From Pseudobdellovibrio sp. (GTDB taxonomy: Bacteria > Bdellovibrionota > Bdellovibrionia > Bdellovibrionales > Bdellovibrionaceae), in the NCBI GenBank assembly GCA_023701385.1, contig JAMPXC010000029.1, positions 1 to 39,668 of the forward strand: a stretch of DNA of 39,668 bases. The letters are read 5' to 3'. The notes beneath the pieces are model-generated. The model searched no databases, was not told the origin of the DNA, and saw only the letters and a list, made by a program, of their open reading frames with translations. A program made the translations under genes and the position numbers. Positions 2,826-27,614 of this stretch are shown here, piece by piece (the stretch's first letter is position 1; each line of letters begins with the position of its first letter).

Positions 2826-3617
2826 TTACGGAGTAGATTTTAAAAACTCGATCGCTTTATCTTCAGCTTCTTGGGCAAAATAATAAGTCGTCAAATGGCC
2901 ACGGTTTTCTACTCGGAAAAACTGGTGAGTTACTTTGTATTGCATTAGTTTTGCGGCCAGCATCTCGGCTTGGTCTATTCCGACGAGGCTATCATCAACG
3001 CCATGGTAAATAAATGTCGGTGGTGTTTCAGAGCCTACAAAATTTAATGGCGAGGCTTCGAGCCAGGTTTTGGGATCGTCGATATATTTGACTCCCATAA
3101 AAGGTGTGATGAGCGGTGAATCAGGATAACTTGGAAAATACGACGGAATACCACCAACCACAATGGCATGAATACCGGTGCCTAAATCTTTTTGGTTACC
3201 CAACAAAAAAGCCAGATGCGCCCCTGCTGAATAGCCCCATATAGAAATATTTTGTGTATTCAAATTATATTTAGGGGCATGTTCTAAAATCCAGGGTATA
3301 GCTGCTTTCACGTCACTCACCTGCACCGGATATCTGTACTCGGGCACAAATCTATAAGTGATATTTAACGCGGCAAAACCTTTTTCAGCCAGGTATTTAC
3401 AAATCCCCTCCATGTCACCACTACGATTACGCCAGCCGCCACCGTGAATCACCACCACTAAAGGAAGAGGCTTTTCTGATTTTTCTTTAGGTAAAAATAA
3501 ATCGGCTTTTAAAGTGTGCTGATCTTTAGTTTTGTATTCAACTTGAATAATATGGCTGGAGCAAGATGTGAAAAAAACAATGACAATTAAAATCCAGAAA
3601 CTATTTTTTAAGTTCAT
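2826..3617 (-). CDS. Lipoprotein alpha/beta-hydrolase (esterase/lipase)
   Basis: With the ATG at 3617 the protein is 263 residues and starts with a lipoprotein signal ending in FFTSC (lipid-modified Cys19). That start has a good GGAG ribosome site; an upstream TTG at 3635 lacks one. The hydrolase domain shows an HGGGW oxyanion-hole motif at 58-62, the GYSAG nucleophile elbow at 128-132 (Ser130), Asp208 or Asp209 in GVDDS and His241 in RGHL, a complete Ser-Asp-His triad. The arrangement resembles BD-FAE/carboxylesterase-type enzymes that cleave short ester bonds. As a lipoprotein it should face the periplasm. It is the last gene of the lipid operon, overlapping the preceding gene by 17 bp, so its substrate may be an envelope lipid. 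That is inference. Confidence 0.85.
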   Translation of the reverse strand: MNLKNSFWILIVIVFFTSCSSHIIQVEYKTKDQHTLKADLFLPKEKSEKPLPLVVVIHGGGWRNRSGDMEGICKYLAEKGFAALNITYRFVPEYRYPVQVSDVKAAIPWILEHAPKYNLNTQNISIWGYSAGAHLAFLLGNQKDLGTGIHAIVVGGIPSYFPSYPDSPLITPFMGVKYIDDPKTWLEASPLNFVGSETPPTFIYHGVDDSLVGIDQAEMLAAKLMQYKVTHQFFRVENRGHLTTYYFAQEAEDKAIEFLKSTP

Positions 3618-10863: not shown

Positions 10864-13656
10864 CTATGATGTACGGGCGCCGATTGCGCCCCACATTGAA
10901 AAAACACCAAGCCCACTACTCCATGACCAGCTGATGCCGTCTGCAGACAGATAGAAGCTGGATGGATAACCGGAAGTAATCAAACAGTATTTATTTCCGT
11001 TCCAAGCAAGTCCTGACCAATTCCAATTAAGTCCTGTTGATCTGGCTGTCCAGGTAATTCCGTCTAGAGATGTGGCCGCATTTGTTGAGCCACCGGCCAC
11101 CGCTAAAAATTGTGTGCCATTAAACACCAGTAATGACCAACTTGATGACACCGGAAGAGTGCGAGCCGTCCACGTGATTCCATCTGTAGAAGTAGCTGCC
11201 GTCATGGAGTTTCCCGCCACTGCACAAAAGAGCGATCCAGAAACGGCAATATCATTCCAATCACCATTTATCATCGTCACTGTCGGAAGAGTGGCCGAAG
11301 ACCAACTGCTGCCATTCGGTGAGTTCCAGCACTGAAAAGCATCTTCGTAAACCGCACAAAAACTTATTCCGTTCGAAGCAATCCCACGACCACTGTAATT
11401 TCCACCGGTTGATTGTGTCCACGTCACCCCATCAGCTGACGTAACAACGGCCGTGTTACCTGAACTGAGAGCACAGAATAACGAACCATTCCAGGCGACT
11501 CGGTTCCAGTAAGTATCCAGTGGTAAATTATTCGATGATGTCCAAGTCAATCCATCGGTGGATGTGATGGCAGTTAGACCACTGCCCACAGCGCAAAACG
11601 CTGAACCGTTCCAAATAATTTGTTCAAAGCCTCCGGTTGTGACCGGCATTGAGGGCATATATCCTTGAGTCCAAGTCATACCATCTGTTGATCTGGCATT
11701 TTTATTATTTGCTCCCGTGCTTGTCCACGTGTGCGAAATAAACTGTGCTCCGGTCCAATGAATGTACGACCAGTAACCTGATGATGGCATAGAGCGAGCT
11801 GTCCAGGTGATGCCATCAGGTGAAGTGGCAGATACAGATGTGTTCTGCGCGACTGCACAGAACAGTGAACCATTCCACTCCACACAGGTCCACATCTGAA
11901 CAGACGGAAGACTGCGCGCCGTCCAGGTCACTCCATCGGGCGAAGTTAACGCCGTGGAACTGCTGTAAGCGATGGTGCAAAAAACACCGGCTCCCCAAGT
12001 AAGATATTGTCCAGCATTGGATGGAAGAGTTTGTGCGGTCCACGTAATTCCGTCGGGCGAAGTGGCTGCAACAGCCTGACTTCTTCCGACGATACAAAAT
12101 TGAGTTCCGCTCCACGCAATTCCTTGCCAATTTGAAGACGATGGTAAAGTTCGCGCCGTCCAGGTGATTCCGTCAGATGAAGTCGCAGCATTTGTTGAAT
12201 TGGCTGCTACAGCCACGAACAGAGAGCCATTTGTTTCAATGGCCAGCCAATTACCCCATGTCGGTAGCGTTCGCTCTGTCCAAGTGATACCATCGGGTGA
12301 AGTCGCGCATTTGTCACTCGATTCAGCGACCGCGCAAAAAACTGAACCATTCCAAGCGACTGCCATCCAGTCTCTTGCCGCAGGCATAGCCCGCGGAGTC
12401 CAGGTGACTCCGTCTGTTGTAGTCGCACAATAATTATTGTAGTTATCACTGAGCGCCACGGTGACCGAACCATTACTGGCCATCTGTTGCCAATACACAT
12501 AATCTTGCATCATTGAAGGGGGTACGCTGTTAACTGTCCAAGTTAATCCATCGGCCGAATAAACACTTGTTCTAAATTGTGAAGTTATGGCAACAAACTT
12601 TCCACTGCCGTAAGCCATCGATGACCAAGTTCCCGCCACTGGTAAACCACTGCGTGCGGTCCAAGTAACTCCGTCTGGAGATGTCGCATAATCTGCGCTG
12701 GTGGCGGCAAAAGCTACAAAAAGTCCAGCGCCCCAAGCTAAAGCTTTCCATTGCCGTGTGGCCGGCAAAGTTTGCTGTGTCCAAGTAACTCCGTCTGGTG
12801 AAGTCACTGCAATAGTTGAATTATTGGCAATCGCTACAAAGAGAGATCCGTTCCACGTCAAAGCTGACCATTCACCGGCGACCGGTAATGTTCGCCCTGT
12901 CCAACTAACGCCATCCGAAGACGTTGCCGCTGTGGCCGTATTTTTTGCTAAAGCACAGTATTGCGAACCATTCCATATAATACAACTCCAGTCAGCAATT
13001 GCACTGACAACTGATGGCATTGTTCGGCTTGTCCAGGTCACACCATCGGGTGATGTCGCGGAAACATTTGTACCACTGGCGACCGCGCACCAAACAGAAC
13101 CATTCCACGATACCGATTGCCAACTTTGAGTTGCGGGCAGAGTTTGCTGAGTCCATGTGACACCGTCAGTTGATATCACAGCTTTATTTGAAGCTTGCGC
13201 AATCGCACACCACATGGCGCCATTCCACTTCATCGCTGTCCAGTTGGCGGTTGTTGGTAAAGTGGCTGTAGTCCAGGTTATACCATCTGTTGATTTTGCA
13301 ACGGTCGTCGTATTTGAATTTAGCGCGCACCAATAACTTCCATTCCATTCAACCACCGTCCAAAAAGTACTTTCTGGTAAAGTGCGCGATGTCCATGATT
13401 GCCCGGTTCTAGAAGTTATCGCCGTTGCAGAATTGTAAGGAACAACACAAAATTTTTCTATCGATGGTCCGCGCTTACGCCAAAGACCATGAGGAATCAT
13501 CTGCGCCGCAGACTCATCAATCACGCCTAATGTAACTAACAAATGCGACCATAACGATGATCCCAATAAGACCGATGATGTGCCAGTGGCGCCGCGCTTG
13601 AAGAATTCTCGCCGACTCATTGTAGATTTATTTTTTGAATTCTTAACTGCGTTCAC
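10864..13656 (-). CDS. Tat-exported protein of about 21 propeller-blade repeats
   Basis: The 930-residue product (GTG at 13656, AAGGA ribosome site 10 nt upstream; a TTG at 13674 and an ATG at 13620 are alternatives) has a twin-arginine signal, SRREFFKRG with Arg15-Arg16, then a hydrophobic stretch and an AxA-like site near residue 50. The rest consists of about 21 repeats of 40-45 residues, each built as W-x(5)-WNGSxFCAVA, a variable loop, then S-x-DG-x-TWT-x-R-x-LP. This resembles the Asp-box of sialidase/BNR propellers (S-x-D-x-G-x-x-W) with one residue fewer. Twenty-one blades would make three seven-bladed propellers. It lies directly after the third fibre gene and is probably co-expressed with it. 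No enzyme motif is visible; binding of a surface ligand is the likeliest role. Confidence 0.8.
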   Translation of the reverse strand: MNAVKNSKNKSTMSRREFFKRGATGTSSVLLGSSLWSHLLVTLGVIDESAAQMIPHGLWRKRGPSIEKFCVVPYNSATAITSRTGQSWTSRTLPESTFWTVVEWNGSYWCALNSNTTTVAKSTDGITWTTATLPTTANWTAMKWNGAMWCAIAQASNKAVISTDGVTWTQQTLPATQSWQSVSWNGSVWCAVASGTNVSATSPDGVTWTSRTMPSVVSAIADWSCIIWNGSQYCALAKNTATAATSSDGVSWTGRTLPVAGEWSALTWNGSLFVAIANNSTIAVTSPDGVTWTQQTLPATRQWKALAWGAGLFVAFAATSADYATSPDGVTWTARSGLPVAGTWSSMAYGSGKFVAITSQFRTSVYSADGLTWTVNSVPPSMMQDYVYWQQMASNGSVTVALSDNYNNYCATTTDGVTWTPRAMPAARDWMAVAWNGSVFCAVAESSDKCATSPDGITWTERTLPTWGNWLAIETNGSLFVAVAANSTNAATSSDGITWTARTLPSSSNWQGIAWSGTQFCIVGRSQAVAATSPDGITWTAQTLPSNAGQYLTWGAGVFCTIAYSSSTALTSPDGVTWTARSLPSVQMWTCVEWNGSLFCAVAQNTSVSATSPDGITWTARSMPSSGYWSYIHWTGAQFISHTWTSTGANNKNARSTDGMTWTQGYMPSMPVTTGGFEQIIWNGSAFCAVGSGLTAITSTDGLTWTSSNNLPLDTYWNRVAWNGSLFCALSSGNTAVVTSADGVTWTQSTGGNYSGRGIASNGISFCAVYEDAFQCWNSPNGSSWSSATLPTVTMINGDWNDIAVSGSLFCAVAGNSMTAATSTDGITWTARTLPVSSSWSLLVFNGTQFLAVAGGSTNAATSLDGITWTARSTGLNWNWSGLAWNGNKYCLITSGYPSSFYLSADGISWSWSSGLGVFSMWGAIGARTS

Positions 13657-13674
13657 GGTGTTTTTTTCCTTCAA

Positions 13675-16600
13675 TTACATGTCCGGCATCCAAGAAACGT
13701 AAACATCTGAACCCATCACTAAGAAGGTGTAGAGTGTGTGTTTACCTGAAGTTGTCGCGCCATGATCTGCCGGCAAGTGCACCGTTAAACTTGTCGAGCC
13801 CGCATCAGAAAAAGCGGTGAATGAACAGGTCGCGGCTGATGTACCTTTAACGGCGAAAGTATAAGAACCACCGTCTTTCATATTATGAAGCGCAAATAAA
13901 CCACAATCACTTGTAGTGTATTGTAAATTGCCATTTAAAAAATTAATCGGTGACGCCGTGATGCTGACAGCAGGTTTCATTAACATCGTTCCACTGACTT
14001 CCAAGGCTGCACGTGGTGCTGTGGTACCGATACCAATATTACCGGTGTTAGTGATGCGCAGGCGCTCCACTGAGGCGGTTTTTAATATCATGGCACTCGA
14101 GTGCTGATTGTTAATTTCAAAGCCGGTCGTATCTGCAGACATAAGAACGCCGTTGGTCACCAGCGAACCGAGAGTATTATTATTTAACAGAAGAGTTGCC
14201 GCACTGCCCGCGCCGTTAACATGCAATTTTGCAGCGGGTGTTGTTCCTACACCAAAAGAACCGTTCACTGGATCGAAACTGGCCAACATCGAATACGAAC
14301 CACAGCTGGCATTCATACAGGAAGCCAAGGCCATATTTCCGGACCACTCAACAAATTTATAATCTTTCGCTGTCAAATCTAAAACTAATTGATTGGCCAC
14401 CGCTAGTCCATTGCCGGTAAAAGAATTTGCAGGCCCGATGTTAAGGCTACTTTCTGTCGTGTTCCAACGCAAGCTGCTGTTAGCGCCCAATGACCCTGCA
14501 TTATTATATTGAACTTGCCCTGATGAACCCGCGATAGCTGTTGCTGACGCGGCAATGGCATTTAGACTTTTGCGTGTGCTGGTTCCGTCAGTAAAATAAT
14601 AGTTAGAGCCATCGTATTCAACCGTTCCCGGCTGTGGTGAAGCTAACAGAGTACCTGGCGTAAACTTCAAGGGTGCCACTGAAGAAGTTCCAGCTCCCAT
14701 GTGCAGTTTCGCTGTTGGCGCCGCTCCCGCTCCGATACCGACGTTTCCAGTGTTGTAATATGTGCTGCTGCCAGAGACAGTCCAAACAGGCAGAAAAGGC
14801 ACTCCGTTAATAAGAAAGTTATAGGCATTAATAGTGCCATTCACATCAAGATCGTAGTTTGGATTTGTTGTTCCGACACCCACATTACCGTCAGCACCTA
14901 CGATAAGTTGACCCGAACCGACGTTTAAACCACCTGATGGTAAATTTAAATTTCCGCTCATTGATCCACCCGAAGAATTCACTGGCACATAGCCAATCAG
15001 CTCAAGCACTTCAGCTGCTGAAACAAGACTTCCCTCAAAACAAAAATCCGGACTACTGCAATCAAGAATAGCCAGATCCGCAAACTGCGTTCGTCCGTTG
15101 CCTGGATTATCTTGATCGGCCGTTAAATTGACTTTCCACAAGTTCCAAGGAGCTTCATTCATAATTAAATCTTCAAGCGGAATTCCAGATACGTTATTTC
15201 TTCCTTCAAAAATTCGGAAGCGTGATTTATTTAACGAAGGTAAAAAAGAAATTTGGAAAGTTTTCCAGCCACCATTGACCGAATAATTTCCATAATTATC
15301 TGCTATTGTTCCGTAAATGGCCGGGTTTGAGCAATCAAAGCCAAATTCCATCTGCCCCGGAGATGCGCTCCAAGAAAAAGAGGGCGTATTGCCATCCTGG
15401 GTAATCATCACCATCGGATCATTACAATTGCTATTGCTATCATTAAAGTAAACTGAAACGCGAATTTCTTTATCGCCAGAAATCACTTGATTTACCTGGT
15501 AATAGCCAGCTGCGTTTGAATTGGCATCTCCAGCAAACGTAATTAAAGGTCCAAATCCTAAATCTGCAAAGACGGCTGTGGCTGCCGAAGCTACCCCAGG
15601 TATCCAAGTGTAGTTTGGCGAGCCCGCATCAGAAAGATCGATAGCCGTCGAACTTACGGCAACGGCATAAGATAAACCTTTGCCGCTGACGACGTTCCAA
15701 CCGGCTCCATTCGATATAATGGACAGATACTCACCTTCTCTGTTTAAATTCTTGTTATCTGTCGCTCCGATGAGCTGACCTGGCTGAGAAAGGATATTTA
15801 CATTATTGCCGGAAGTGTCGTTTTTTTGGATGTAATATTCACGACCCGCAATTCCTACTGCTGACGGTAATGTTACGTTCACACTTCCTGAAGCGCTGTT
15901 AACAAAAATTAAATTGTCATTCAGACCTAACGTGGTGTTAGTCGTCAATGTAGTTATTTTTTTCGAAATCGAACCTTGAATATCTAATGTCGAATTAGGC
16001 GCACTGGTTCCAATACCAACGTTGCCACTATTATAAAAAATGGCGGAACCTGATGAAGTCCATTGTGCAGTTCCGCTGGCTAAAGCAGAAACTGACGCTG
16101 CCAGAGTTGAATATGAATTCGATAATGCCGTGAATGAAGTTGTTGATGTGTACGATGTTGAAAGCGACACCGGATCTGCCGGAGTATAACCTAATGCTGT
16201 CGTAATATCTGCTGCCGTGATCGTTCCCGAAGAACCCCCACCACCAGCTGTGATACATACAAATCCTGAACCGGTGTATTGCAACGCTTGTGAAGCCACG
16301 CAGGTTGGAATCGCAGAATATTGCACAAAGGCTGTATCGGCTTTGTTGTTAAATAAGACTGAATTATCAGACTTCGTTGCATACATCGCGTAAGGAACAG
16401 CGTTGATATTCATTGCCGGCAATGTTTGCCAACCATTGCCATCGTTAAATTGCATAATAATTTTACGAACATCATTTACTCCAGGATTATAACTTCCTGT
16501 AATCTGACATGCTAAAGATGGTACTGAATTATTGAAGATATCCTGAAATGTAACGGTGCCCGAGGTTGGATAAATTTTTGTTCCGCTCCCTAATGAAAAC

Positions 16601-16839
16601 GAAACTAACCCACTGGTGTCAGTCATATTGATCGCAACGTAATCCTCAATATACAAAATACAGGTTGCTGCCGGGTTTAAAACTGTGAAGCGAAAACTAA
16701 CATTGTTTTCTTCAAGAGTGGTTCCATCGGGCTTAATAATTCTGGCTTGATAGGTTGTTAGCCCAGGTGTAGCCCATGCCGATATGACAAAAAGATAGGC
16801 GAAAACAGTCAAAAAAAGCTTCTGTACGGTTTTATTCAC
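13675..16839 (-). CDS. Surface fibre protein 1, without S74 domain (mosaic adhesin type)
   Basis: The 1054-residue protein has a signal peptide (MNKTVQKLFLTVFAYLFVISA, cleavage near 23) and an N-terminal domain of about 180 residues shared with the two fibres upstream. That domain has a TTYQARIIKPDG start, a QTLPAMNINAVPYAMYA block and four conserved cysteines at 60, 111, 180 and 195. Then come a phage-fibre-like ALGYTPADP linker, five NVGIG-type repeats, a LPSAVGIAGREYYIQKN domain (about 295-390) and a unique beta-rich insert (about 390-615) that looks like a jelly-roll. The C-terminal tip (about 965-1054) is not an S74 chaperone, unlike the paralogues. Such trimeric fibres bind prey surfaces in Bdellovibrio. 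The GTG start lies 7 nt after a FliA-type -10 box. Confidence 0.82.
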   Translation of the reverse strand: MNKTVQKLFLTVFAYLFVISAWATPGLTTYQARIIKPDGTTLEENNVSFRFTVLNPAATCILYIEDYVAINMTDTSGLVSFSLGSGTKIYPTSGTVTFQDIFNNSVPSLACQITGSYNPGVNDVRKIIMQFNDGNGWQTLPAMNINAVPYAMYATKSDNSVLFNNKADTAFVQYSAIPTCVASQALQYTGSGFVCITAGGGGSSGTITAADITTALGYTPADPVSLSTSYTSTTSFTALSNSYSTLAASVSALASGTAQWTSSGSAIFYNSGNVGIGTSAPNSTLDIQGSISKKITTLTTNTTLGLNDNLIFVNSASGSVNVTLPSAVGIAGREYYIQKNDTSGNNVNILSQPGQLIGATDNKNLNREGEYLSIISNGAGWNVVSGKGLSYAVAVSSTAIDLSDAGSPNYTWIPGVASAATAVFADLGFGPLITFAGDANSNAAGYYQVNQVISGDKEIRVSVYFNDSNSNCNDPMVMITQDGNTPSFSWSASPGQMEFGFDCSNPAIYGTIADNYGNYSVNGGWKTFQISFLPSLNKSRFRIFEGRNNVSGIPLEDLIMNEAPWNLWKVNLTADQDNPGNGRTQFADLAILDCSSPDFCFEGSLVSAAEVLELIGYVPVNSSGGSMSGNLNLPSGGLNVGSGQLIVGADGNVGVGTTNPNYDLDVNGTINAYNFLINGVPFLPVWTVSGSSTYYNTGNVGIGAGAAPTAKLHMGAGTSSVAPLKFTPGTLLASPQPGTVEYDGSNYYFTDGTSTRKSLNAIAASATAIAGSSGQVQYNNAGSLGANSSLRWNTTESSLNIGPANSFTGNGLAVANQLVLDLTAKDYKFVEWSGNMALASCMNASCGSYSMLASFDPVNGSFGVGTTPAAKLHVNGAGSAATLLLNNNTLGSLVTNGVLMSADTTGFEINNQHSSAMILKTASVERLRITNTGNIGIGTTAPRAALEVSGTMLMKPAVSITASPINFLNGNLQYTTSDCGLFALHNMKDGGSYTFAVKGTSAATCSFTAFSDAGSTSLTVHLPADHGATTSGKHTLYTFLVMGSDVYVSWMPDM

Positions 16840-16846
16840 AAAAGCT

Positions 16847-16873
16847 TTATCGGTTTACTTTGGTAATCAGTTA
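16847..16873 (-). promoter_or_regulatory. FliA (sigma-28)-type promoter of fibre 1
   Basis: On the minus strand TAAC (16873-16870) is followed after exactly 15 nt by ACCGATAA (16854-16847). The FliA consensus is TAAA-N15-GCCGATAA, so 3 of 4 and 7 of 8 bases match with ideal spacing. The GTG start codon lies 7 nt further on, where transcription should begin. Confidence 0.65.
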
Positions 16874-16954
16874 ATGCTCTATAAAATAATTTTTGTTTAC
16901 TAAAAAGAGATCGGTAACCACTCAATATAACTAAGTATTTTTTTATTTATGATT

Positions 16955-19900
16955 TTATTCGCTTTTAGACTTACAGAAAGGAGCTTCTGGATCCTTCTGA
17001 CATAAGTAAGATTTAAGCGCTTTATTTTCTTCTTCTAAATTTGAGACTTTCTCATGAAGCGCTTGGCTGTCAGAATTCCATTTATGATACAGTTCTTTGA
17101 TCGCATTGAACATCGTCCAAATGATCGAGTCATTGGTTACACGTAAATAGCCATCTTTATCCATGTGCGTAGCTTCAGGAATATTTTTTTGAATCTCTTG
17201 CGCGATAATACCCACGTACTCTTTATCTGAAGGTAATCCCACAGGATTATCTTTTTTATAATTAAAATAAATCGGTTGAATATTTTCAATCGCTGCAAGC
17301 CCACGCGTAAATGGCGCGCGCACATCTTTTAAACGACGATCTGAGGCAATCGTCCAAGTACTTGTTCCTGGTTTCGCCGCAGAGTCTGTAGATAATTGCA
17401 GTTGATAACTTGGATTATTAATACCAATACCAACGTTATTTCCATAAACAACCATACTTGGTGTTGTCGTTCCCCCACCTTGCGGAGAGAAAGAAATTAC
17501 ATCTGGATTTGATTCAGTATAGAAAATACCGTAATTTGGGTCTGCCGTACTAAAGCGCCAGATACCACGTGTTCCACCGTACTTACCACCATAAAGATCA
17601 CCGTCTAATTGCATAGTACCGCTCACATGTAATTGCTGTGTTGGAGCACCCGTATTAATACCGACATAACCGTTTTGATCGATAAGCATTCGCTGAGGTG
17701 AATTAACTGAGTTATCACCTTTCGTATAAAAACTCATCTGACCACCAAAGCCGTTGGCTCCACCGGTGCCCGCTAAAGAAACATTGATAAAACCAGTATA
17801 TAACTGAGTTCCGTTATTTGTATTCACAAAGTGAACAGCACCAACGCGGTCGCCAGCAGCAAGAGGAGTTTTTTGATTCGCTAATGTCAGAGCGGCAGCA
17901 CCTCCTGCTGTTGTCGGATTTGCCGCAACAGCCAGCACGCCCCATTTATTTGTCGTCAGATTCGTATCACCAAATGTCGGTGTGATCGTTCCGAAACCCA
18001 CATTTCCGGTATCTGTTTCAAACATCGCAAGATTACGTGTGGCCGCTGTTTCGCTGGCACCGTGACCACCACGAATTAAAAATTCTCCGCGATTAGCTCC
18101 GAAAGCTCCGGTGTGAATATTTAAATAAGTAATACCATCATCCGTATCGCTTTCTAACGATAGACCATATCCTGTGTTTGCAAAAATATTTCCGCTAGCT
18201 ACAGCCATTCGACCCGAAGTTGAAGCATCGACATGAAACTTTTCCAATGGTGAAACTGTACCGACACCCACATTTCCACTCGCTGTTAACGTCATCAGAT
18301 AATTTAACCCTTGAGTGGCGCGGAAATGAAGATCGTTTGTTCCTAATTGATTAACATTGACACCAATATCCCAGCGCTGTGCTCCTGCGCGGTCAAACGA
18401 AACCAAAGATCGCGCTGTATTTGCGGAACCCGTTGTGTTCACGCCTAATACGGTGGTTGCATTTGATTCAACTTGTAAAATATCAATTGGGCTCGATGTT
18501 CCGATACCCACATTACCTGTCGCTAACGCTGTAAACACAGGCGTATCGTAGACTGAGTCAGTCATGTAATTGCCACCACCGGAAAGAATACGAAATCCGT
18601 CGCTGCTATCGTTATCTCTTAGTGCAACTACAAATTGTCCGTTATCTGGCCCTTCGATGAACGAACCGAAGTCTGATCCACTCAACAGTGAAGTAAACGA
18701 ATTTCCGGCGGAAAAACCATCAAACTTCATCGCTTGGTTGCCCGTATTAAGCTGTAATCTGTGTGTGGCTGACGTTGTACCCACACCGAGATTTCCACTA
18801 AAAGAAGCGTAGTCAGATAAAAATCTAACATCGGCTAAGTTTAAGGAGCCGAAAGCGCGGCTAAATTTTAATTTAGCTGACGTATCTGCCGAGCTTACAC
18901 CAGCCTGGATATAATTATACCCATCCGTGTATTTTGTTAAAAATCTAAAATTACTGTTAACCCCGTCGTTCGCGCCAAAAATAACGGAGTTATTATCTGT
19001 TATACTAACTTGTAATTTAACTGTCGGAGAACTTACGCCAATACCGACATTGCCATTCGGATTTAAAACAAGTTGATCGGTATTCCACGCACCGCCACTA
19101 CTTGTTTTTGTCTGAAGCACTAAATTATTACCCACGTTACCCGCAGTATTTTGCGCTGTTGAAATCGCAGCATTACCAAAACCATCATAGTTAGAAAACA
19201 TTAACGTGTTCAGTGCACCGGCTGTTGTATTTGCATTTTGCAGAACCATCGTTGATGAAACTAATGAAATAGCCGTAGCTGCACTATTGCCAGAAACATG
19301 CAAACGCGCAGTTGGCGATGCCAAACCAATACCCACGTTACCTAAAGAATTAATTATCATTCTGTCAGCGGTTACACCGCTTGCTGTTGTTTGAAAACGT
19401 AAGTCTGCACTTTGAGCGACAGTGTAATCAGTTTCGGCTATAGATCTAACAATTGCGCCGTACCCCAAAGAACTTGCATTTTGCCCTCTAAAGGCCAAAG
19501 CACCCAACGTGTCACCGGCAAGAACAGTCGTACGTGAAGTAGATGTTCCGCGCGATTTAGCTAAATTGATCTGCGCGAAAGTGCCTGCAGAATTATTATT
19601 TGTCGCTTCAATCATAACATCATCGCCGTACGCCGTACCATCACCGATGATCGTTAAACGACGATCCGGGTCTGCTGTTCCGATACCAGTGTAGCCGCCC
19701 CCTTCAACAATGAACTGTGTGCCACTTACATTTTTAAGTTTCAAAAGATCCCAAGCTGTACTACCTCCAAGATCTGCAGTAAAACCACGTTCTCCAGCTG
19801 CGTAGGCATCAGATGCATTACTGTAATCGGCACCTGTGCCATATAAATACATTAAACTTGCCGCTGAAAAATAACTCGAAGTGTGAATTGTACCTGAAAC

Positions 19901-22486
19901 ATTTAAATTTCCACCGATATTCGCGGCTCCGGCTACACCTAAACCACCTTTAACAACAAGAGCACCTGTTTGTGAATTTGTTGAAGCGGTCGTGGCAGAA
20001 ACAATCACACTATTTCCATTTGCAGGCCATAATGATAAATTTCCTGAACTTGAAACAGTTGAAACGTCACTTAAACTTCCCGGTGTCGACGTTGTCGCGA
20101 TCGCGCGGCGAACACCACCTCCATCTGTGACGTAATAATTAGAACCATCATATTCAATCGTTCCTGACTGTGGCGACGACAGTAAAGTACCAGAAGTAAA
20201 TTTTAACGGCGCTGTAGAGGCTGTTCCTGAAACCAAATGAAGTTTTGCTGTCGGTGCTGTTACACCAAGACCGATATTTCCAGTAGCATCAATACGTAAG
20301 CGCTCAGTATTAGCTGTCATAAAACGTAAATAACCTGATTCGCGCAAATTAAGTTCAGCGTTACTAAATACCAAAGATAAATCTAATCCATTCGTTGCTT
20401 GGCCCTGTCCTACCATGGAATGCAACAACGTCAAACTTCCACGAGCTGAAGCTCCATTAACCACAACGGGCTCACCGCTCCACCCGCTAGGTGCATTTCC
20501 GACAAATAAACCTTTAGAGATACGTGTAATACCACTCACCTCAAGAGCCTGTGTTGGCGCAGCTGTTCCGATACCGACGTTACCAGTACCCGTTACGCGT
20601 AAACGCTCACCTGAACCAGCTACAGAATCCTGAGTTGCAATAACAAAATGACCTGTATTTGCAGTAGGATATTGCGCACCGATTTGAACACCTTGCGCTG
20701 TTAAACCCGAAGATAGACGAATCATATTCACAGAGTTGGCTGTTGTGTTTGCATTATGAAGTTGTAAGTTCGGCGAGTGCCCAAATGCAGGATTGGTCCC
20801 AGGCTGATTGTGATCAATCCGTAATGCCGTATTGCTGTCACTTTTTGAAATGTACGCGCCGTAAGCTCCTGCTGCATCCAAAATATGTAATCGATAACTT
20901 GGTGAGGTGGTTCCGATACCGACATTACCTGCGGCATAATGGATTGCTGAACCTGAAGCTGTCCACTGTGATGAAGTCACTGCAGCCATCGAAGCTGATA
21001 AATCATTTACAGTGCTTGTCACTGCAGTCATTGAGTTCGTTAAATTCGTTAAATTTGAACTTACAGTTGTGAATGATGTTGTCACTGTGGAAAATGACGT
21101 AGCCAAACTTGTTGGATCAACCGGAGTATAGCCTAAAGCCGAAATCACTGAGCTTGATGTCACTGTGGCAACAATATCAACGCCATTAATTTTTAAACTT
21201 TTGGCATTCACTGTACCACTCACATCTAAAGTATAAGCTGGCGCGGTTGTTCCAATGCCGACAAAACCATTTTGATCAATGCGCATTCTTTCTAAACGCG
21301 TTGTTGAACTATTCGCTGTTGTTTCAAAAGTCATTGCGGCACCTTGAGCTGTATCTGTCCAGCTTTCGCTGGCTTTGATACCGATCATTCCGCGTGTCGT
21401 TGTTGAAAATCCTGTTGCGCCATAACCTCTGGCACCAAAAGTTCCCAAATAATCATTCGCTAATACAGCTGTCGGCGAAGCCGCTGTTCCACGGGCCTTG
21501 CGTGCCGCAAGTCCTGGAGCTGATGTTCCATTAAAATATCCGTCTAATAGAATATTTGTCGCAATATTATCTGAAATATGTAATTTACCAATCGGCGTAT
21601 CTGTGCCAATACCTACATTACCATTCGTGTAATTAATTGTTGTACCACTTGTAGTCCACTGTGATGAAGTAATGGCTGACACCGCTGCCGTTAAATTTGT
21701 TAACGAGGCTGATAACCCACCGACTGTTGTTGTAACAGCTGTCACCGAACTTCCTAATGAGTCAACTGCTGCCGTCACTGTTGAAAAAGAAGCCGTTGTT
21801 GTAAACGAAGAGGAAAGTGTCGCTGGATTTGCCGGGGTATAACCTAGTGCTGATGTCACATCACTTGATGTCACCGTGTAAGAAGTTCCGCCGCCTGCTG
21901 TAATACAAGAAAAAGTAGCACCATTAAAATGTAAAGCTTGTGAAGCTGCACATGTTGGCATTGTTGAATACTGCACAAACGCAGAATCAGCTTTACCGTT
22001 AAATAAAATACTGTCTTCAGATTTTCCGGCATACATCGCATACGGAACAGCATTGATACTCATCGCAGGTAGTGTTTGCCAACCGGTACCATCATTAAAC
22101 TGCATCACAATTTTTCTGATATCAGATGAAACCGGATTATATATCCCCGGTGATTGGCAGCTGTACGATACTGTCGAGTTATCAAACATTGAAGAAATCG
22201 CTGTCGAACTGGCTGGAAAAGTTTTTGTGCCCGCACCTAAAGCGAAAGAAATTAACCCACCGCTGTTGGCCATATTCACGGCTGCATACGATTCAACATA
22301 CAGCACACAAGTTCCGGTTGGATCTAAAATTGAAAACTGAAATGAAACATTGTTCGCTTCAAGTGGATAACCATCGGGCTTAATAATTTTAGCTTGATAT
22401 GTGGTTCGGCCCGGTGCCGCAAATACATTTGCTGCAACTATCAGAAAAAACATTAAAAAAGTGATAAGATTCTTCACACGTACCAC
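16955..22486 (-). CDS. Surface fibre protein 2 with C-terminal S74 chaperone
   Basis: At 1843 residues this is the largest fibre. It has a signal peptide (cleavage near residue 23), the shared N-terminal domain with four cysteines, two ALGYTP linkers with helical heptad-like Thr/Ser/Val stretches, and about 14 NVGIG-type repeats (GNVGIGT-x-P then L-x-V-SG) spaced roughly 60-150 residues apart. The C-terminus is an S74 intramolecular chaperone. SDRRLK (Ser1715, Lys1720) is the predicted self-cleavage dyad, followed by PFTRG, SDKEYVGIIAQE and a final coiled coil (about 1795-1825). In phage endosialidase tailspikes this domain assembles the trimer and then cuts itself off before the Ser. The first GTG lies 7 nt after a FliA-type box; a second GTG three codons on is possible. 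Confidence 0.85.
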   Translation of the reverse strand: MVRVKNLITFLMFFLIVAANVFAAPGRTTYQAKIIKPDGYPLEANNVSFQFSILDPTGTCVLYVESYAAVNMANSGGLISFALGAGTKTFPASSTAISSMFDNSTVSYSCQSPGIYNPVSSDIRKIVMQFNDGTGWQTLPAMSINAVPYAMYAGKSEDSILFNGKADSAFVQYSTMPTCAASQALHFNGATFSCITAGGGTSYTVTSSDVTSALGYTPANPATLSSSFTTTASFSTVTAAVDSLGSSVTAVTTTVGGLSASLTNLTAAVSAITSSQWTTSGTTINYTNGNVGIGTDTPIGKLHISDNIATNILLDGYFNGTSAPGLAARKARGTAASPTAVLANDYLGTFGARGYGATGFSTTTRGMIGIKASESWTDTAQGAAMTFETTANSSTTRLERMRIDQNGFVGIGTTAPAYTLDVSGTVNAKSLKINGVDIVATVTSSSVISALGYTPVDPTSLATSFSTVTTSFTTVSSNLTNLTNSMTAVTSTVNDLSASMAAVTSSQWTASGSAIHYAAGNVGIGTTSPSYRLHILDAAGAYGAYISKSDSNTALRIDHNQPGTNPAFGHSPNLQLHNANTTANSVNMIRLSSGLTAQGVQIGAQYPTANTGHFVIATQDSVAGSGERLRVTGTGNVGIGTAAPTQALEVSGITRISKGLFVGNAPSGWSGEPVVVNGASARGSLTLLHSMVGQGQATNGLDLSLVFSNAELNLRESGYLRFMTANTERLRIDATGNIGLGVTAPTAKLHLVSGTASTAPLKFTSGTLLSSPQSGTIEYDGSNYYVTDGGGVRRAIATTSTPGSLSDVSTVSSSGNLSLWPANGNSVIVSATTASTNSQTGALVVKGGLGVAGAANIGGNLNVSGTIHTSSYFSAASLMYLYGTGADYSNASDAYAAGERGFTADLGGSTAWDLLKLKNVSGTQFIVEGGGYTGIGTADPDRRLTIIGDGTAYGDDVMIEATNNNSAGTFAQINLAKSRGTSTSRTTVLAGDTLGALAFRGQNASSLGYGAIVRSIAETDYTVAQSADLRFQTTASGVTADRMIINSLGNVGIGLASPTARLHVSGNSAATAISLVSSTMVLQNANTTAGALNTLMFSNYDGFGNAAISTAQNTAGNVGNNLVLQTKTSSGGAWNTDQLVLNPNGNVGIGVSSPTVKLQVSITDNNSVIFGANDGVNSNFRFLTKYTDGYNYIQAGVSSADTSAKLKFSRAFGSLNLADVRFLSDYASFSGNLGVGTTSATHRLQLNTGNQAMKFDGFSAGNSFTSLLSGSDFGSFIEGPDNGQFVVALRDNDSSDGFRILSGGGNYMTDSVYDTPVFTALATGNVGIGTSSPIDILQVESNATTVLGVNTTGSANTARSLVSFDRAGAQRWDIGVNVNQLGTNDLHFRATQGLNYLMTLTASGNVGVGTVSPLEKFHVDASTSGRMAVASGNIFANTGYGLSLESDTDDGITYLNIHTGAFGANRGEFLIRGGHGASETAATRNLAMFETDTGNVGFGTITPTFGDTNLTTNKWGVLAVAANPTTAGGAAALTLANQKTPLAAGDRVGAVHFVNTNNGTQLYTGFINVSLAGTGGANGFGGQMSFYTKGDNSVNSPQRMLIDQNGYVGINTGAPTQQLHVSGTMQLDGDLYGGKYGGTRGIWRFSTADPNYGIFYTESNPDVISFSPQGGGTTTPSMVVYGNNVGIGINNPSYQLQLSTDSAAKPGTSTWTIASDRRLKDVRAPFTRGLAAIENIQPIYFNYKKDNPVGLPSDKEYVGIIAQEIQKNIPEATHMDKDGYLRVTNDSIIWTMFNAIKELYHKWNSDSQALHEKVSNLEEENKALKSYLCQKDPEAPFCKSKSE

Positions 22487-22493
22487 AGTTAAC

Positions 22494-22520
22494 TTATCGG
22501 AATTTCACAAAAAATTTAAA
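22494..22520 (-). promoter_or_regulatory. FliA (sigma-28)-type promoter of fibre 2
   Basis: TCCGATAA (22501-22494 on the minus strand) matches 7 of 8 bases of the FliA -10 element and lies exactly 7 nt before the GTG, as in the other two fibre genes. The -35 is poorer: TTTA sits at the ideal 15-nt spacing, and a full TAAA (22518-22515) is present at 13 nt. Confidence 0.5.
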
Positions 22521-22604
22521 GTTCTTTATCATGACTTCATTTTTTATAAGCGAACATATTTGATTACAGTGCTTTTTCTTTAAAGCAAAAGCTCGACTTC
22601 AGTC

Positions 22605-22622
22605 AAAAATCTCAGACTGAGA
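22605..22622 (-). terminator. Weak terminator-like hairpin after fibre 3
   Basis: Reading on the minus strand, TCTCA-GTC-TGAGA (22622-22610) forms a 5-bp stem followed at once by five T. It lies about 25 bp after the fibre 3 stop and upstream of the fibre 2 promoter, as expected if each fibre gene has its own transcript. The stem is short. Confidence 0.35.
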
Positions 22623-22645
22623 CAGCACATAAAATTCCATCTTAT

Positions 22646-25600
22646 TTATTTTTTCTGCTCTACTGCTTGTTCAATTTTCTGGAGACGCTCTTCAAGTTCT
22701 CTGATTTTTTGATCTTTCACTGCGCTTTCAGCTTTCACTGATGCAATTTCGCGCTCATGTTTTTCTAACAGAGCATCGTGACCAATAATCTTGTGATAGA
22801 TTTGCTTAATCGCATTTACCGCTGTCCAAAAAACCGCATCACTTGTGAAATGTAAAAAACCTTTTTCATCAACTGAAACAGATTCAGGAACAACTTTCTG
22901 CGCATCTTGCGCACTGATACCAACGTACTCTTTATCAGAAGGCAATCCCAATGGATTATTCTTTTTGTAGGTAAAATAAATCGTATGCAAACCAAGAAGC
23001 TCATCAATACCGCGGGTAAATGGCGCCCGCGAATCTTTTAAACGCATATCTGAAGTAATGGTCCAACCTGTTGTACCTGGCTTACCGGCAGAATCAGATC
23101 CTAACTGTAAAAGATAAGTTGGATTTGCCACACCTATACCAACATTGCCGCCCGGAGTAATATTCATAATCGAAGAATTGACAACACTACGAAATCTTAA
23201 AACTTGATTCGCTCCCGATAAATAGTTATCAATAACAAAAACGTCATCACCAGATGTTCCCGCTGCAAATTGCAGTTCACCACCTTCAACTCCGCTCAGA
23301 TTTTGTCGATTTAATTTCATCGTACCGCCGCCCACAGCAGAACTACCAACCTCAAAATTTACCGTAGGCGATGACGTTCCAATACCGACGTAACCTAAAG
23401 ATGAAATTCTAAAACGCTCAGCACCTGATGTGTACAGCGACATGCTATTTTCTGAATTTTCATAAATAATACGACCTGCAAAATCATTCGATGGATAACC
23501 AAAATCAATAAAGCCACCGCCGGTACTTGATGCAGATCCCTTTAACTCTAAAGATGAATAAGCCCCACTTAAACCTAAGCTTGCACCTTGTACAGTAGCC
23601 ACACCATTATTGCTTCCCGTAATATGCAAGGCTCCTTGCGGATTAGTTGTACCGATTCCCACATCGCCGTTCTCATCAATCGCCATGCGCATCGCGACTG
23701 CATTAGAATCGAAGATATAAAATTTTCCTGGCACACCATAGGTCGTCTCAGAAGCGCCACCCACGCCCATACGCCATTCGCGCGCATCGGTTTTAAATTG
23801 TGCTTCAGCAAAAATGCTGTTTGCGTTTGTTTGTGTAGCTTCAATACGTAAACCACGCGAAGTGCCTGTGCCGCTGCTCACGATATTTAGCGTTGTCGAT
23901 GGAGCACTTGTACCGATACCTGTTGCCCCGGTGTAAGTAACGACAAACTTATCAATGCTGTTATGTTTTGCTTCAAAAAGATTATTGGTGTTACTTGATT
24001 TACCATTTAAGACAAGTAAACGGCCACCAAAGTTTCCATTTCCCACGGTTAACATCGGAACTGTCGAATTGACATTTGTATCCATCGTAATACGCCCTGC
24101 CCAGTCGATACTCATAATACTTGTGCCATCAGATTTATCGACTCTGAACGGTGATTCAGATGCTACTTGACGGACTTGTAATTTAGATGATTGTGCCGTT
24201 GTTCCGATACCCACATAACCTGATGAATTAATCGCTAAATTACTTGTGCCAGAAACAGCTAAAAATAAGTTTCCGGCTTTATTATTTTTAAGCGATAAAT
24301 CAAAATTTGTTCCGCTTTCGTAACCAATATAACCCGATGGTGTATTTAAATCTGTGCGGTCGGCATAGAACTCCATTGAAACTTCGTTTTTCGTTCCGCC
24401 ATCAGCTGAAGCTTGCGTTTTTAATCCCAGCACACCGGATTTATCTGTGGCATTGACCGCCTGACCATAGATTTCAACATTACCTTCATTCGTTACACCC
24501 ATTAAACGATTCGCATTTGCTGGAGCTGTAGTCGCTGCGCTTCCTTTGGCTAACCAGAAATAGCCAGTAGCATCCATATCATTGATCATGTTAAAAGTAT
24601 CAATAGCGGCGGCGGCCGTTTTTTTAATTTGAATTCCGGTGGCCCCAGAACTCTCAACACTTAAATGTCCGACGGGAGCCGATGTACCGATTCCGACTTT
24701 TCCGCCATTTGGTGCCAGCAAAATATTTCCTTTAGTCGCGTGTGTTGTTGAATCAAGCGTTAAATTTCCAGCTGAATTTACAGAGCCTGCAATATACGGT
24801 GAAATCATTCCACTTGTGGCTGTGACCGATACCCCCTGGATATTAGATGATGTCACGATATTACCTGAAGAATAAATATTTCCCGCAATACCTAAGCCCC
24901 CGTTAACAACTAAGGCTCCCGTATTTGATGAAGTCGATGCTACTGTTGATGATACAATCACACTGTTTGCACCGCCGTTTGGATTCATCACGATGTTTCC
25001 CGTTGAGTTAATATTGGAGGCATTATCAACCGTGCCACTTGATGAACCTGTACTAATAGCACGGCGTTGCCCGCTGCCATCAGTTACGTAAAAATTGGCA
25101 CCGTCATACTCCATCGTGCCTGATTGTGGTGATGTTAATAATGTTCCACTGGTGAATTTAAAAGGTGCTGTCGATGGTGTGCCGGCGGCTAAATGTAATT
25201 TTGCCGCCGGAGTTGTCGTACCGATACCGACATTACCTGTTGAAAGCGCTGTACCACTGGCGTTTAAGCCTGTTGCAAAAATTAAATTTCCGATAGTTAG
25301 AAAATTACTGCTTGCCGCGGTGGGAGTATCAATATCGTGACCAATCACAATGTTATTAGCTCCCGTTGAAATTTGATCACCCGCTTTATAGCCCAGCAAA
25401 ATATTATTAGAACCCGCAGTTCTTAAGGCATTACCGGCCATATAGCCGACCACTGTAGAATTTTGATAATTTGACAAACCTGAGACACCACGTCCGGCGC
25501 TACGACCAAGTAAAACGTTACCTGAACCTGTTTGATTAAAAACACCCACGTGTGTCCCCACACCGACGTTTTCACTTCCGCTTGAATTACTTAAAAGAGC

Positions 25601-27580
25601 CTGCTCACCGAGTGCCACATTGTAGTCACCCGTAGAATTACTATCTAAGGCAAATACACCAACTGCAGTGTTGTAACTACCGGTAACATTTCCTTCCATA
25701 GCGTATGTTCCCACAGCGACGTTGTTGGTTGAACCTTGATCGTAGCGCATGGCGTACGATCCTAAAGCTGTGTTCTGCATTCCCGAAGGAGATTCTTCCA
25801 TCGCATATTCACCGATCGCTACATTTTGCCAACCTGAAGAATTTAAACGTAAGGCATCGCGACCAAAAGCGGTGTTTGAAATATCATTACCTGCACCACG
25901 GCCAAGCGTTAAACCATTTACTTTCACATCACCGCTCACATCTAACAGAGCTACCGGAGCACTTGTGCCGATACCGACATAACCACTTACATAGTTAATA
26001 GTGGTGCCTGACGTCGCCCATTGTGAAGAAACAGCACCACTGGCTTGCGGCGTATAGCCTAAAGCTGTTGCGACATCACTGGCTGACAATTGCGAGCCTG
26101 ATGTTACACGGCCTTTTCCATCAACTGTGACTTTCGTGTATTGCGTACCACTTGCGATACCAACAAAACTTGGAAGACGTGCTTCATTTAAAATACCGGT
26201 TGCACTTGCTGAACCTAAATCAACACTATTTGCCGTAGCAAATGTACCTAAACTGCTTTGCAATGCTGACACTGTCGCACTGTTGGCTGGAGTATACCCT
26301 AACACTTGCGCAAGACTTGCGGCACTTGATGTAATTTTATTACTGAAATTAACATAATCAGCATTTGAAATTAAACCCGCTGTTACAGATCCTGTTGCCG
26401 ACGCAAGTGGAATATTTAATGTATGTACCCCACCCGCAGTACTAAACGCGGGGGCATTGCCCGAAGTTCCATTCGCTAAAATTTGTGTCGCCGAAGTTGA
26501 TCCATTAAATGAAGTAATTCCGGCACCGGCCACGCCAAACGCTGACCACGTTGTGCCGTTACAAAATTCCACATTACTACCGTTATAACGTAATGTTCCG
26601 GCAAGACCGGCAGCACAAGCCGATGAGTCCATACCAATTTTTACAGCACCGCTCACCTCTAATTTTGCAACCGGTGTTGTAATACCAATACCCACACTAC
26701 CGCTGTTGTAGCTGATCACCGCTCCTGAAGTTGACCATTGCGAACTGGTAATTCCAGAAACCGCCGCAGCCAAAGCACTGTATGAGGCCGACAAATCATT
26801 CACCGTTGAAGTTATCGTCGTGACCGAACTGCCCAGTGAATTCACTGTCGTAGTCACTGTTGAAAACGAAGCTATTGATGTGTACGACGTTGAAAGTGTG
26901 GCAGGATTTACCGGGGTATAACCTAGTGCTGATGTCACATCACCTGAAGTGACGGTGTACGATGCACCACCACCACCACCGGCAGCGATACACACAAAGC
27001 CTGCACCCGTGTATTGCAAGGCTTGGGATGCCGCGCATGTCGGAATAGCAGAATACTGCACAAAAGCGGTGTCAGTTTTGTTATTAAATAACGTTGAATT
27101 ATCAGAACTAGTTGCATACATCGCGTAAGGAACTGCATTGATATTCATTGCAGGCAAAGTTTGCCAACCACTTCCATCGTTAAATTGCATTACGATTTTA
27201 CGGGTGTCGTTAACCGCTGCAGTGAAAGAAGCTCCTCCACCACTTTGGCAAGCTATTGCCGGAGTCGCGTTATTAAAAACATCAGCAAATGTCGGAGTGC
27301 CCGAGGCTGGATAAATTTTTGTTCCTGTTCCTAAAGAGAATGAAACTAAACCCGCTGTGCTCGACATATTCACGGCCGAATAATCTTCGATATACAGAAC
27401 GCAATCTGCCGTGGGATTTAAAATTGTAAAACGAAAATTTACGCTTGCACTTTCTAGCGCAAGCCCATCAGGTTTAATAATTTTCGCTTGGTATGTTGTT
27501 AACCCAGGTACCGCAAACACTTTTAGCGTAAGCAAAAAAATAGGAAGTAGAACATACCATAACTTTTGGACGGTTTTCAC
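22646..27580 (-). CDS. Surface fibre protein 3 with YadA-like head and S74 chaperone
   Basis: The 1644-residue protein has a signal peptide (MKTVQKLWYVLLPIFLLTLK, cleavage near 23), the shared N-terminal domain with four cysteines, three or four ALGYTP-type linkers and about nine NVGIG repeats. A distinct block at about 565-745 holds seven or more repeats of 20-25 residues of the form G-x-x-N-x-A-x-G-x-x-A, like YadA/Hep_Hag trimeric head repeats (for example NVAIGEYAM, NTALGSYAM, NVAVGTYAM). The end is an S74 chaperone with SDMRLK (Ser1510, Lys1515), SDKEYVGISAQD and a long terminal coiled coil (about 1600-1644) expected to be released on self-cleavage. It is the first gene of the fibre locus, with a GTG start 7 nt after a FliA-type box. 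Confidence 0.85.
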   Translation of the reverse strand: MKTVQKLWYVLLPIFLLTLKVFAVPGLTTYQAKIIKPDGLALESASVNFRFTILNPTADCVLYIEDYSAVNMSSTAGLVSFSLGTGTKIYPASGTPTFADVFNNATPAIACQSGGGASFTAAVNDTRKIVMQFNDGSGWQTLPAMNINAVPYAMYATSSDNSTLFNNKTDTAFVQYSAIPTCAASQALQYTGAGFVCIAAGGGGGASYTVTSGDVTSALGYTPVNPATLSTSYTSIASFSTVTTTVNSLGSSVTTITSTVNDLSASYSALAAAVSGITSSQWSTSGAVISYNSGSVGIGITTPVAKLEVSGAVKIGMDSSACAAGLAGTLRYNGSNVEFCNGTTWSAFGVAGAGITSFNGSTSATQILANGTSGNAPAFSTAGGVHTLNIPLASATGSVTAGLISNADYVNFSNKITSSAASLAQVLGYTPANSATVSALQSSLGTFATANSVDLGSASATGILNEARLPSFVGIASGTQYTKVTVDGKGRVTSGSQLSASDVATALGYTPQASGAVSSQWATSGTTINYVSGYVGIGTSAPVALLDVSGDVKVNGLTLGRGAGNDISNTAFGRDALRLNSSGWQNVAIGEYAMEESPSGMQNTALGSYAMRYDQGSTNNVAVGTYAMEGNVTGSYNTAVGVFALDSNSTGDYNVALGEQALLSNSSGSENVGVGTHVGVFNQTGSGNVLLGRSAGRGVSGLSNYQNSTVVGYMAGNALRTAGSNNILLGYKAGDQISTGANNIVIGHDIDTPTAASSNFLTIGNLIFATGLNASGTALSTGNVGIGTTTPAAKLHLAAGTPSTAPFKFTSGTLLTSPQSGTMEYDGANFYVTDGSGQRRAISTGSSSGTVDNASNINSTGNIVMNPNGGANSVIVSSTVASTSSNTGALVVNGGLGIAGNIYSSGNIVTSSNIQGVSVTATSGMISPYIAGSVNSAGNLTLDSTTHATKGNILLAPNGGKVGIGTSAPVGHLSVESSGATGIQIKKTAAAAIDTFNMINDMDATGYFWLAKGSAATTAPANANRLMGVTNEGNVEIYGQAVNATDKSGVLGLKTQASADGGTKNEVSMEFYADRTDLNTPSGYIGYESGTNFDLSLKNNKAGNLFLAVSGTSNLAINSSGYVGIGTTAQSSKLQVRQVASESPFRVDKSDGTSIMSIDWAGRITMDTNVNSTVPMLTVGNGNFGGRLLVLNGKSSNTNNLFEAKHNSIDKFVVTYTGATGIGTSAPSTTLNIVSSGTGTSRGLRIEATQTNANSIFAEAQFKTDAREWRMGVGGASETTYGVPGKFYIFDSNAVAMRMAIDENGDVGIGTTNPQGALHITGSNNGVATVQGASLGLSGAYSSLELKGSASSTGGGFIDFGYPSNDFAGRIIYENSENSMSLYTSGAERFRISSLGYVGIGTSSPTVNFEVGSSAVGGGTMKLNRQNLSGVEGGELQFAAGTSGDDVFVIDNYLSGANQVLRFRSVVNSSIMNITPGGNVGIGVANPTYLLQLGSDSAGKPGTTGWTITSDMRLKDSRAPFTRGIDELLGLHTIYFTYKKNNPLGLPSDKEYVGISAQDAQKVVPESVSVDEKGFLHFTSDAVFWTAVNAIKQIYHKIIGHDALLEKHEREIASVKAESAVKDQKIRELEERLQKIEQAVEQKK

Positions 27581-27587
27581 TTGTATC

Positions 27588-27614
27588 TTATCGGAAAAAT
27601 TGATGATTTAGTTA
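27588..27614 (-). promoter_or_regulatory. FliA (sigma-28)-type promoter of fibre 3
   Basis: TAAC (27614-27611 on the minus strand), 15 nt, then TCCGATAA (27595-27588): the same arrangement as fibre 1, with the FliA consensus spacing. The GTG begins 7 nt after the box and there is no Shine-Dalgarno. Confidence 0.65.

What the first reader, a model, noticed from the sequence alone, without database searches (positions are those of the whole stretch)
16837..27614. Three fibre genes start with GTG at a fixed 7 nt from a FliA-type -10 box, implying leaderless attack-phase mRNAs
Seen: on the minus strand each fibre gene has (A/T)CCGATAA followed by exactly 7 nt and a GTG start (27595-27578, 22501-22484 and 16854-16837). 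Fibres 1 and 3 also have TAAC exactly 15 nt upstream of the box; fibre 2 has TTTA at that spacing or TAAA at 13 nt. None has a Shine-Dalgarno, and there is no other plausible start for the signal peptides of fibres 1 and 3. Known: the sigma-28/FliA consensus is TAAA-N15-GCCGATAA, and FliA-type motifs have been linked to attack-phase genes in Bdellovibrio. Inference: +1 falls on or beside the GTG, so the mRNAs are leaderless GUG messages controlled by the flagellar sigma factor, tying fibre synthesis to motility and prey search. The invariant 7-nt spacing would follow naturally if the start codon must be at +1.
Basis: partly seen in the sequence, partly recalled or inferred. Interest (0 to 1): 0.88.

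Follow-up and report, generated by a model that had tools for sequence, protein, structure and literature searches.

The report
Leaderless flagellar-sigma mRNAs for prey-recognition fibres
In this predatory Bdellovibrio relative, genes for the fibres that recognise prey, and many unrelated genes, begin exactly where the flagellar sigma factor should start transcription, so their messages probably carry no ribosome-binding leader; the same layout recurs across the whole phylum and seems not to have been described.

Summary
It is also not confined to these genes. In the window's own genome CCGATAA-N7-RTG occurs 35 times, and 21 of these look like real gene starts, against 0, 0, 4, 3, 5 and 3 at spacings 4, 5, 6, 8, 9 and 10. 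Thirteen of the 21 are unrelated to fibres (FliL, lytic transglycosylase, subtilase, PilZ, HD domain and others). B. bacteriovorus HD100 repeats the peak (22 against 2, 5, 4, 6). Fibres found by protein similarity alone keep N7 in 8-9 of 10 genes in B. qaytius and 12 of 15 typical ones in HD100, where the start codon is ATG, so spacing is conserved but GTG is not. Published 5' ends of two of three FliA-marked HD100 sRNAs lie exactly 7 nt after the box. A matched sigma-70 box shows no such peak. Best reading: sigma-28 promoters whose +1 is the start codon, or within 2 nt of it. FliA control of the attack phase is already published; I found no report of leaderless architecture. Direct 5' ends for these fibres are still missing.

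The parts
27611..27614 (-). -35 element TAAC of fibre 1
   Evidence: TAA-N17-CCGATAA match
27588..27595 (-). FliA-type -10 box TCCGATAA of fibre 1
27578..27580 (-). GTG start codon of fibre 1, 7 nt after the box; predicted +1 at 27580
22646..27580 (-). fibre 1 coding sequence (1644 aa; signal peptide, MAT-type N-terminal domain, C-terminal Peptidase_S74)
22517..22520 (-). weak -35 candidate TTTA of fibre 2
22494..22501 (-). FliA-type -10 box TCCGATAA of fibre 2
22484..22486 (-). GTG start codon of fibre 2, predicted +1 at 22486 (an alternative in-frame GTG lies 9 nt downstream)
16955..22486 (-). fibre 2 coding sequence (1843 aa; signal peptide, MAT-type N-terminal domain, Peptidase_S74)
16870..16873 (-). 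-35 element TAAC of fibre 3
16847..16854 (-). FliA-type -10 box ACCGATAA of fibre 3
16837..16839 (-). GTG start codon of fibre 3, predicted +1 at 16839
13675..16839 (-). fibre 3 coding sequence (1054 aa; signal peptide, MAT-type N-terminal domain, no S74; phage tail-fibre profile match)

Best explanation
Each fibre gene has its own sigma-28 (FliA) promoter placed so that transcription starts on the first base of the start codon (or at most about 2 nt before it). The mRNA is therefore leaderless, and the ribosome must begin at a 5'-terminal GUG without a Shine-Dalgarno. This is one case of a layout used by dozens of genes: a phylum-wide subset of sigma-28 promoters in Bdellovibrionota carries the start codon exactly 7 nt after CCGATAA. 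Other sigma-28 genes have ordinary leaders with a Shine-Dalgarno. Because FliA drives the attack-phase programme in Bdellovibrio, the fibres are expected to be made with the flagellum, before prey contact. Shown here: the box, the spacing and its conservation, the -35 signal and the presence of fliA. Inferred: FliA use, +1 at the start codon, leaderless translation and attack-phase timing.
For: Own genome: CCGATAA-N7-RTG 35 times against 4 for the reversed pattern; 21 start-like genes at N7 against 0,0,4,3,5,3 at N4,5,6,8,9,10. A -35 signal emerges unselected: T at -21 in 17/21, A at -19 and at -18 in 16/21 each; YAA in 11/21 against 5/99 non-start sites. Position -1 is a pyrimidine in 15/21, and in 18/22 in HD100. 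HD100 replicate: 22 start-like at N7 against 2,5,4,6 at N5,6,8,9. Fibres found by homology: B. qaytius 8/10 at N7 (9/10 with TCGATAG), HD100 12/15 at N7 with ATG. A ninth own-genome fibre, found by accident beside fliA, has CCGACAA-N7-GTG. Full promoter with N7: 192 hits against 52 at N10 (same reading frame) in 144 class genomes; family f12: 237 against 17 controls. Published 5' ends of HD100 APsRNA6 and 7 lie 7 nt after their boxes. No sigma-70 box peak at start codons. FliA at 274 bits. FliA motif in 92/140 attack-phase promoters (PMC3627812); flp1 and flagellin promoters respond to Bdellovibrio FliA (PMC5430801).
Against: No 5' end is mapped for any of these fibre mRNAs. The third FliA-marked sRNA, APsRNA3, starts 11 nt after its box, and in E. 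coli aer the start is 6 bp after the octamer (PMC2859248), which would give a 2-nt leader here. The -35 is weak at fibre 2, L004 and L005, and HD100 N7 genes mostly lack TAA at -35 (0/22 YAA), so another sigma factor sharing the CCGATAA box is not ruled out. In HD100, three FliA-motif promoters gave more reporter with an added ribosome-binding site than with the native region (PMC12622784), though it is not known whether those three are leaderless.
Confidence: 0.83

Rival explanations
1. Near-leaderless rather than leaderless: FliA starts transcription 1-3 nt upstream of the start codon, leaving a stub too short for a Shine-Dalgarno. The spacing reflects selection for a minimal leader, not for +1 on the codon.
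For: E. coli aer starts 6 bp after the octamer. A minority of start-like genes have N6, N8, N9 or N10 (4,3,5,3; 5,4,6 at N6,8,9).
Against: Two HD100 5' ends fit N7 exactly. The base before the start codon is a pyrimidine, as expected at -1, while N5 and N6 show no preference. A merely short leader would spread over several spacings.
Confidence: 0.2
2. The shared layout is only inheritance among recent fibre paralogues, with no functional constraint on spacing.
For: The fibres are paralogous (58-70% identity to fibre 1 over the N-terminal domain), and all own-genome fibres seen use GTG.
Against: 13 of 21 N7 genes in the own genome and 15 of 22 in HD100 are not fibres. HD100 fibres keep N7 with ATG, a different spacer and a different -35.
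Confidence: 0.03
3. The promoters belong to another sigma factor with a CCGATAA-like -10 and a relaxed -35, so the leaderless class is not FliA-controlled.
For: HD100 N7 genes have a weak -35. The own genome has several other sigma-70-family matches below the FliA cut-off.
Against: In the own genome the -35 T-N-AA signal is clear and matches the HD100 attack-phase motif TTAAG-N16-CCGATA. fliL is in the set. CGA of the -10 is the core of sigma-28 recognition.
Confidence: 0.1
4. Translation starts at a downstream codon, so the mRNAs do have a leader.
For: Fibre 2 has an in-frame GTG 9 nt downstream.
Against: Fibres 1 and 3 have no later start that leaves a charged signal-peptide N-region, and the gene-start peak at N7 over many unrelated genes would not exist if these starts were wrong.
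Confidence: 0.04

Closest known systems
FliA (sigma-28) attack-phase regulon of Bdellovibrio bacteriovorus HD100 (PMC3627812)
   Same: Same -10 box (CCGATA) and similar -35; cell-surface and secreted products beyond the flagellum.
   Different: That paper does not mention leaderless mRNAs; its calling rule required a start site to lie upstream of a gene. No spacing to the start codon is reported in the text.
MAT (mosaic adhesive trimer) fibres of HD100 (PMC10769870)
   Same: Same N-terminal domain after the signal peptide: a profile built from the window's fibres finds exactly 21 places in HD100, the published number. Two of the three window fibres have Peptidase_S74.
   Different: Promoters and translation starts are not treated in that paper. 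Window fibres start with GTG, HD100 fibres with ATG.
-10-adjacent leaderless genes of Deinococcus-Thermus (PMC12340547) and leaderless ATG/GTG mRNAs of mycobacteria (PMC4633059)
   Same: A promoter -10 placed directly before the ORF so that +1 is the start codon; in mycobacteria GTG works as well as ATG at the 5' end.
   Different: Those are genome-wide habits not tied to a flagellar sigma factor (for the sigma factor: my own knowledge). Here the signal is tied to a sigma-28 box, and a sigma-70-like box shows no peak.
Leptospira interrogans leaderless transcripts (PMC5243855)
   Same: Many mRNAs with leaders of 0-10 nt in a motile Gram-negative.
   Different: Not linked there to sigma-28 in the passages read; motility genes were under-represented among leaderless ones at 37 C.

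Membership tests
sigma-28 (FliA) promoter | -10 box GCCGATAA-like | tested here: met
   CCGATAA at all three fibres
sigma-28 (FliA) promoter | -35 TAAA-like element 15-16 nt upstream of the -10 | tested here: inconclusive
   TAAC-N15 at fibres 1 and 3, only TTTA at fibre 2; across 21 genes AA at -19/-18 in 13 and YAA in 11
sigma-28 (FliA) promoter | FliA encoded in the genome | tested here: met
   TIGR02479, 274 bits, over the cut-off
sigma-28 (FliA) promoter | transcription depends on FliA | not testable with these tools
   needs depletion or in vitro transcription
leaderless mRNA | 5' end at the first base of the start codon | not testable with these tools
   indirect only: N7 in two published HD100 5' ends and pyrimidine at -1
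leaderless mRNA | no Shine-Dalgarno; ATG or GTG start | tested here: met
   none at the three fibres; SD-like in about 4% of boxed genes against 32% of others
MAT fibre | conserved N-terminal domain of about 130 aa after a signal peptide | tested here: met
   alignment, and the profile finds 21 HD100 places, the published number of MATs
MAT fibre | trimeric beta-prism with variable tip | not tested
   no fold prediction run; S74 found in fibres 1 and 2 only

The most novel reading that the evidence does not exclude
Leaderless initiation is a dedicated attack-phase channel: sigma-28 makes leaderless messages that non-growing attack-phase ribosomes (for example stored 70S particles) translate preferentially, so the flagellar sigma factor switches both which genes are transcribed and how they are translated in predatory bacteria.
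Probability: 0.15. Interest if true: 0.88.

Novelty: new variant of a known kind. Interest (0 to 1): 0.66.

Why it matters
If true, a global developmental sigma factor is hard-wired to leaderless translation across a bacterial phylum, and prey-recognition fibres are in that set. It corrects start-codon annotation for many predation genes and explains missing ribosome-binding sites. It warns that grafting a Shine-Dalgarno or moving the start codon in Bdellovibrio constructs changes the native mechanism. It also gives a simple genomic signature, CCGATAA-N7-RTG, for finding candidate attack-phase genes in uncultured Bdellovibrionota.

Tried and rejected
Chance: rejected by spacing controls, the reversed-pattern control and replication in HD100. 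Coding-frame artefact (GAT-AAx, Asp-Lys, puts RTG in frame at N4, N7 and N10): addressed by the gene-start filter (N4 gave 0, N10 gave 3) and by the class-wide N10 control (52 against 192). A genome-wide leaderless habit with sigma-70: no TATAAT peak near start codons. GTG as an essential element: rejected, HD100 uses ATG. The eight own-genome fibres listed first were found by the box itself, so the homology-selected B. qaytius and HD100 sets, and the ninth own-genome fibre, are the unbiased tests. Supplementary tables of PMC3627812 could not be read.
Full report
WHAT WAS CHECKED. All three stretches were read. Each fibre gene has NCCGATAA, seven bases, GTG on the minus strand at the stated coordinates. 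TAAC sits 15 nt upstream of the octamer at fibres 1 and 3; fibre 2 has only TTTA. The GTGs are the first start codons of the longest ORFs. CCGATAA occurs nine times in the window on both strands; three of these are the fibre sites, and none of the others precedes a gene start in this way.

IS IT MORE THAN CHANCE? The window is contig C69 of a 3.18-Mb draft genome (G000). CCGATAA-N7-RTG occurs there 35 times, against 4 for the reversed pattern. Neighbouring spacings average about 17 each (52 for N4-6, 48 for N8-10). I then asked which RTGs look like gene starts: ORF of at least 50 codons, close upstream stop, no longer overlapping frame. Counts for N4 to N10 are 0, 0, 4, 21, 3, 5, 3; under equal expectation over seven spacings 21 of 36 has probability about 1e-9. 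Eight of the 21 are fibres. Thirteen are not, and those identified with Pfam include FliL, an SLT transglycosylase, a subtilase, a PilZ protein, a C92 amidase, an ABC ATPase and an HD-domain protein.

IS IT A SIGMA-28 PROMOTER? The 21 were chosen only by the -10 box, N7 and gene start. Their upstream bases nevertheless show T at -21 (17/21), A at -19 (16/21) and A at -18 (16/21) relative to CCGATAA. YAA at -20 to -18 occurs in 11/21, against 0/14 and 5/85 in non-start sites. This matches the HD100 attack-phase motif TTAAG-N16-CCGATA, found in 92 of 140 mapped attack-phase promoters (PMC3627812). The genome encodes FliA (274 bits). HD100 N7 genes have a weaker -35, so FliA use is inferred, not shown. 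Some sigma-28-type sites in the own genome have ordinary leaders with a Shine-Dalgarno (L049, 64 nt, GGAGG; L051, 73 nt, AGGAG), so two classes coexist.

WHERE IS +1? Genome G023 was recognised as HD100 by its contig length of 3,782,950 bases (the length is from my own knowledge). Of the three HD100 sRNAs that PMC3627812 marks as FliA-driven, APsRNA6 (CCGAAAA-gttatac-[G]) and APsRNA7 (CCGTAAA-agaaagg-[G]) start exactly 7 nt after the box; APsRNA3 starts 11 nt after it. In E. coli aer the start is 6 bp after the octamer (PMC2859248). The base just before the start codon is a pyrimidine in 15/21 own-genome and 18/22 HD100 genes, as usual at -1 before a purine +1. So +1 on the first base of RTG is most likely; one or two bases upstream is possible.

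CONSERVATION. HD100 repeats the spacing peak: 22 start-like genes at N7 against 2, 5, 4 and 6 at N5, N6, N8 and N9, 7 of them MAT fibres. Fibres chosen by protein similarity only, blind to the box, give N7 in 8 of 10 in Bdellovibrio sp. qaytius (9 if TCGATAG is counted) and in 12 of 15 typical HD100 fibres, which start with ATG there. The profile finds 21 HD100 places, the published number of MAT proteins; the six most divergent lack the arrangement, some with a Shine-Dalgarno instead. A ninth own-genome fibre, met by accident beside fliA, has CCGACAA-N7-GTG. Start codon, spacer and -35 differ between lineages while the spacing stays, which points to selection on spacing. Across 144 genomes of the class the full promoter with N7 occurs 192 times (reversed control 30), and with N10, which shares the reading frame, 52 times (control 24). 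In 116 genomes of family f12, in the same phylum but another class, the N7 count is 237 against 17.

IS IT SPECIFIC? In a sample of 183 own-genome and 138 HD100 genes without a CCGA box, TATAAT-like boxes show no peak at 5-8 nt from the start codon, whereas CCGATAA peaks at 7. SD-like sequences occur in about 32% and 30% of these genes but in 4-7% of boxed ones. The sample was gathered around CCGATAA sites and is not random.

MECHANISM. Shown: box, fixed spacing, -35 signal, absence of a Shine-Dalgarno, conservation, fliA. Inferred: FliA-RNA polymerase starts on the first base of the start codon; a ribosome takes the 5'-terminal AUG or GUG without a Shine-Dalgarno, as in mycobacteria, where 5' ATG or GTG is necessary and sufficient (PMC4633059). 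[quoted passage not shown]

AGAINST KNOWN WORK. FliA control of the attack phase, MAT fibres and leaderless mRNAs are each known. Searches of open-access full text for leaderless mRNAs in Bdellovibrio or linked to sigma-28 found no report of the combination; most subscription papers are not in that library. The 2013 start-site calling rule required a position upstream of a gene, which could have hidden leaderless starts. In HD100, adding a ribosome-binding site raised reporter output from three FliA-motif promoters (PMC12622784), a point against strong native initiation there if those genes are leaderless, which I did not check.

LIMITS. No RNA data exist for this organism here. The first eight own-genome fibres were found through the box.

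Noticed in passing
L266 (G000:C44, around the fliA match at 2944-3615, minus strand): A further MAT-type fibre gene lies two genes from fliA (order: flhG/MinD-like, fliA, small secreted ORF, fibre) and has CCGACAA-N7-GTG; fliA itself has a leader with GAGGGG.
   Followed up: partly
window 10864-13674, minus strand: The ORF directly after fibre 3 (mechanical TTG start abutting the fibre stop) has a twin-arginine-like signal (SRREFFKRG) and many repeats of the type TSPDGxTWTxRTLP, suggesting a secreted beta-propeller; its true start is unclear.
   Followed up: partly
window 13675-16839: Fibre 3 lacks the S74 chaperone domain that ends fibres 1 and 2 and instead matches phage tail-fibre families near its C-terminus.
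   Followed up: partly
G000 N7 genes (L004-L006, L014, L017-L019, L151) against HD100 loci L245-L258: All nine own-genome fibres seen start with GTG while the HD100 N7 fibres start with ATG at the same spacing; among own-genome N7 genes GTG is 8/8 in fibres and 3/13 in others.
   Followed up: partly
HD100 605,617-605,647, minus strand (L239, L283): APsRNA5, not marked as FliA-driven in the paper, has a perfect GCCGATAA about 23 nt upstream of its listed start.
   Followed up: no
HD100 N7 genes: At -21 every one of 22 genes has a pyrimidine, but YAA at -20 to -18 is absent, unlike the window's genome; the -35 preference of this class may differ between genera.
   Followed up: no
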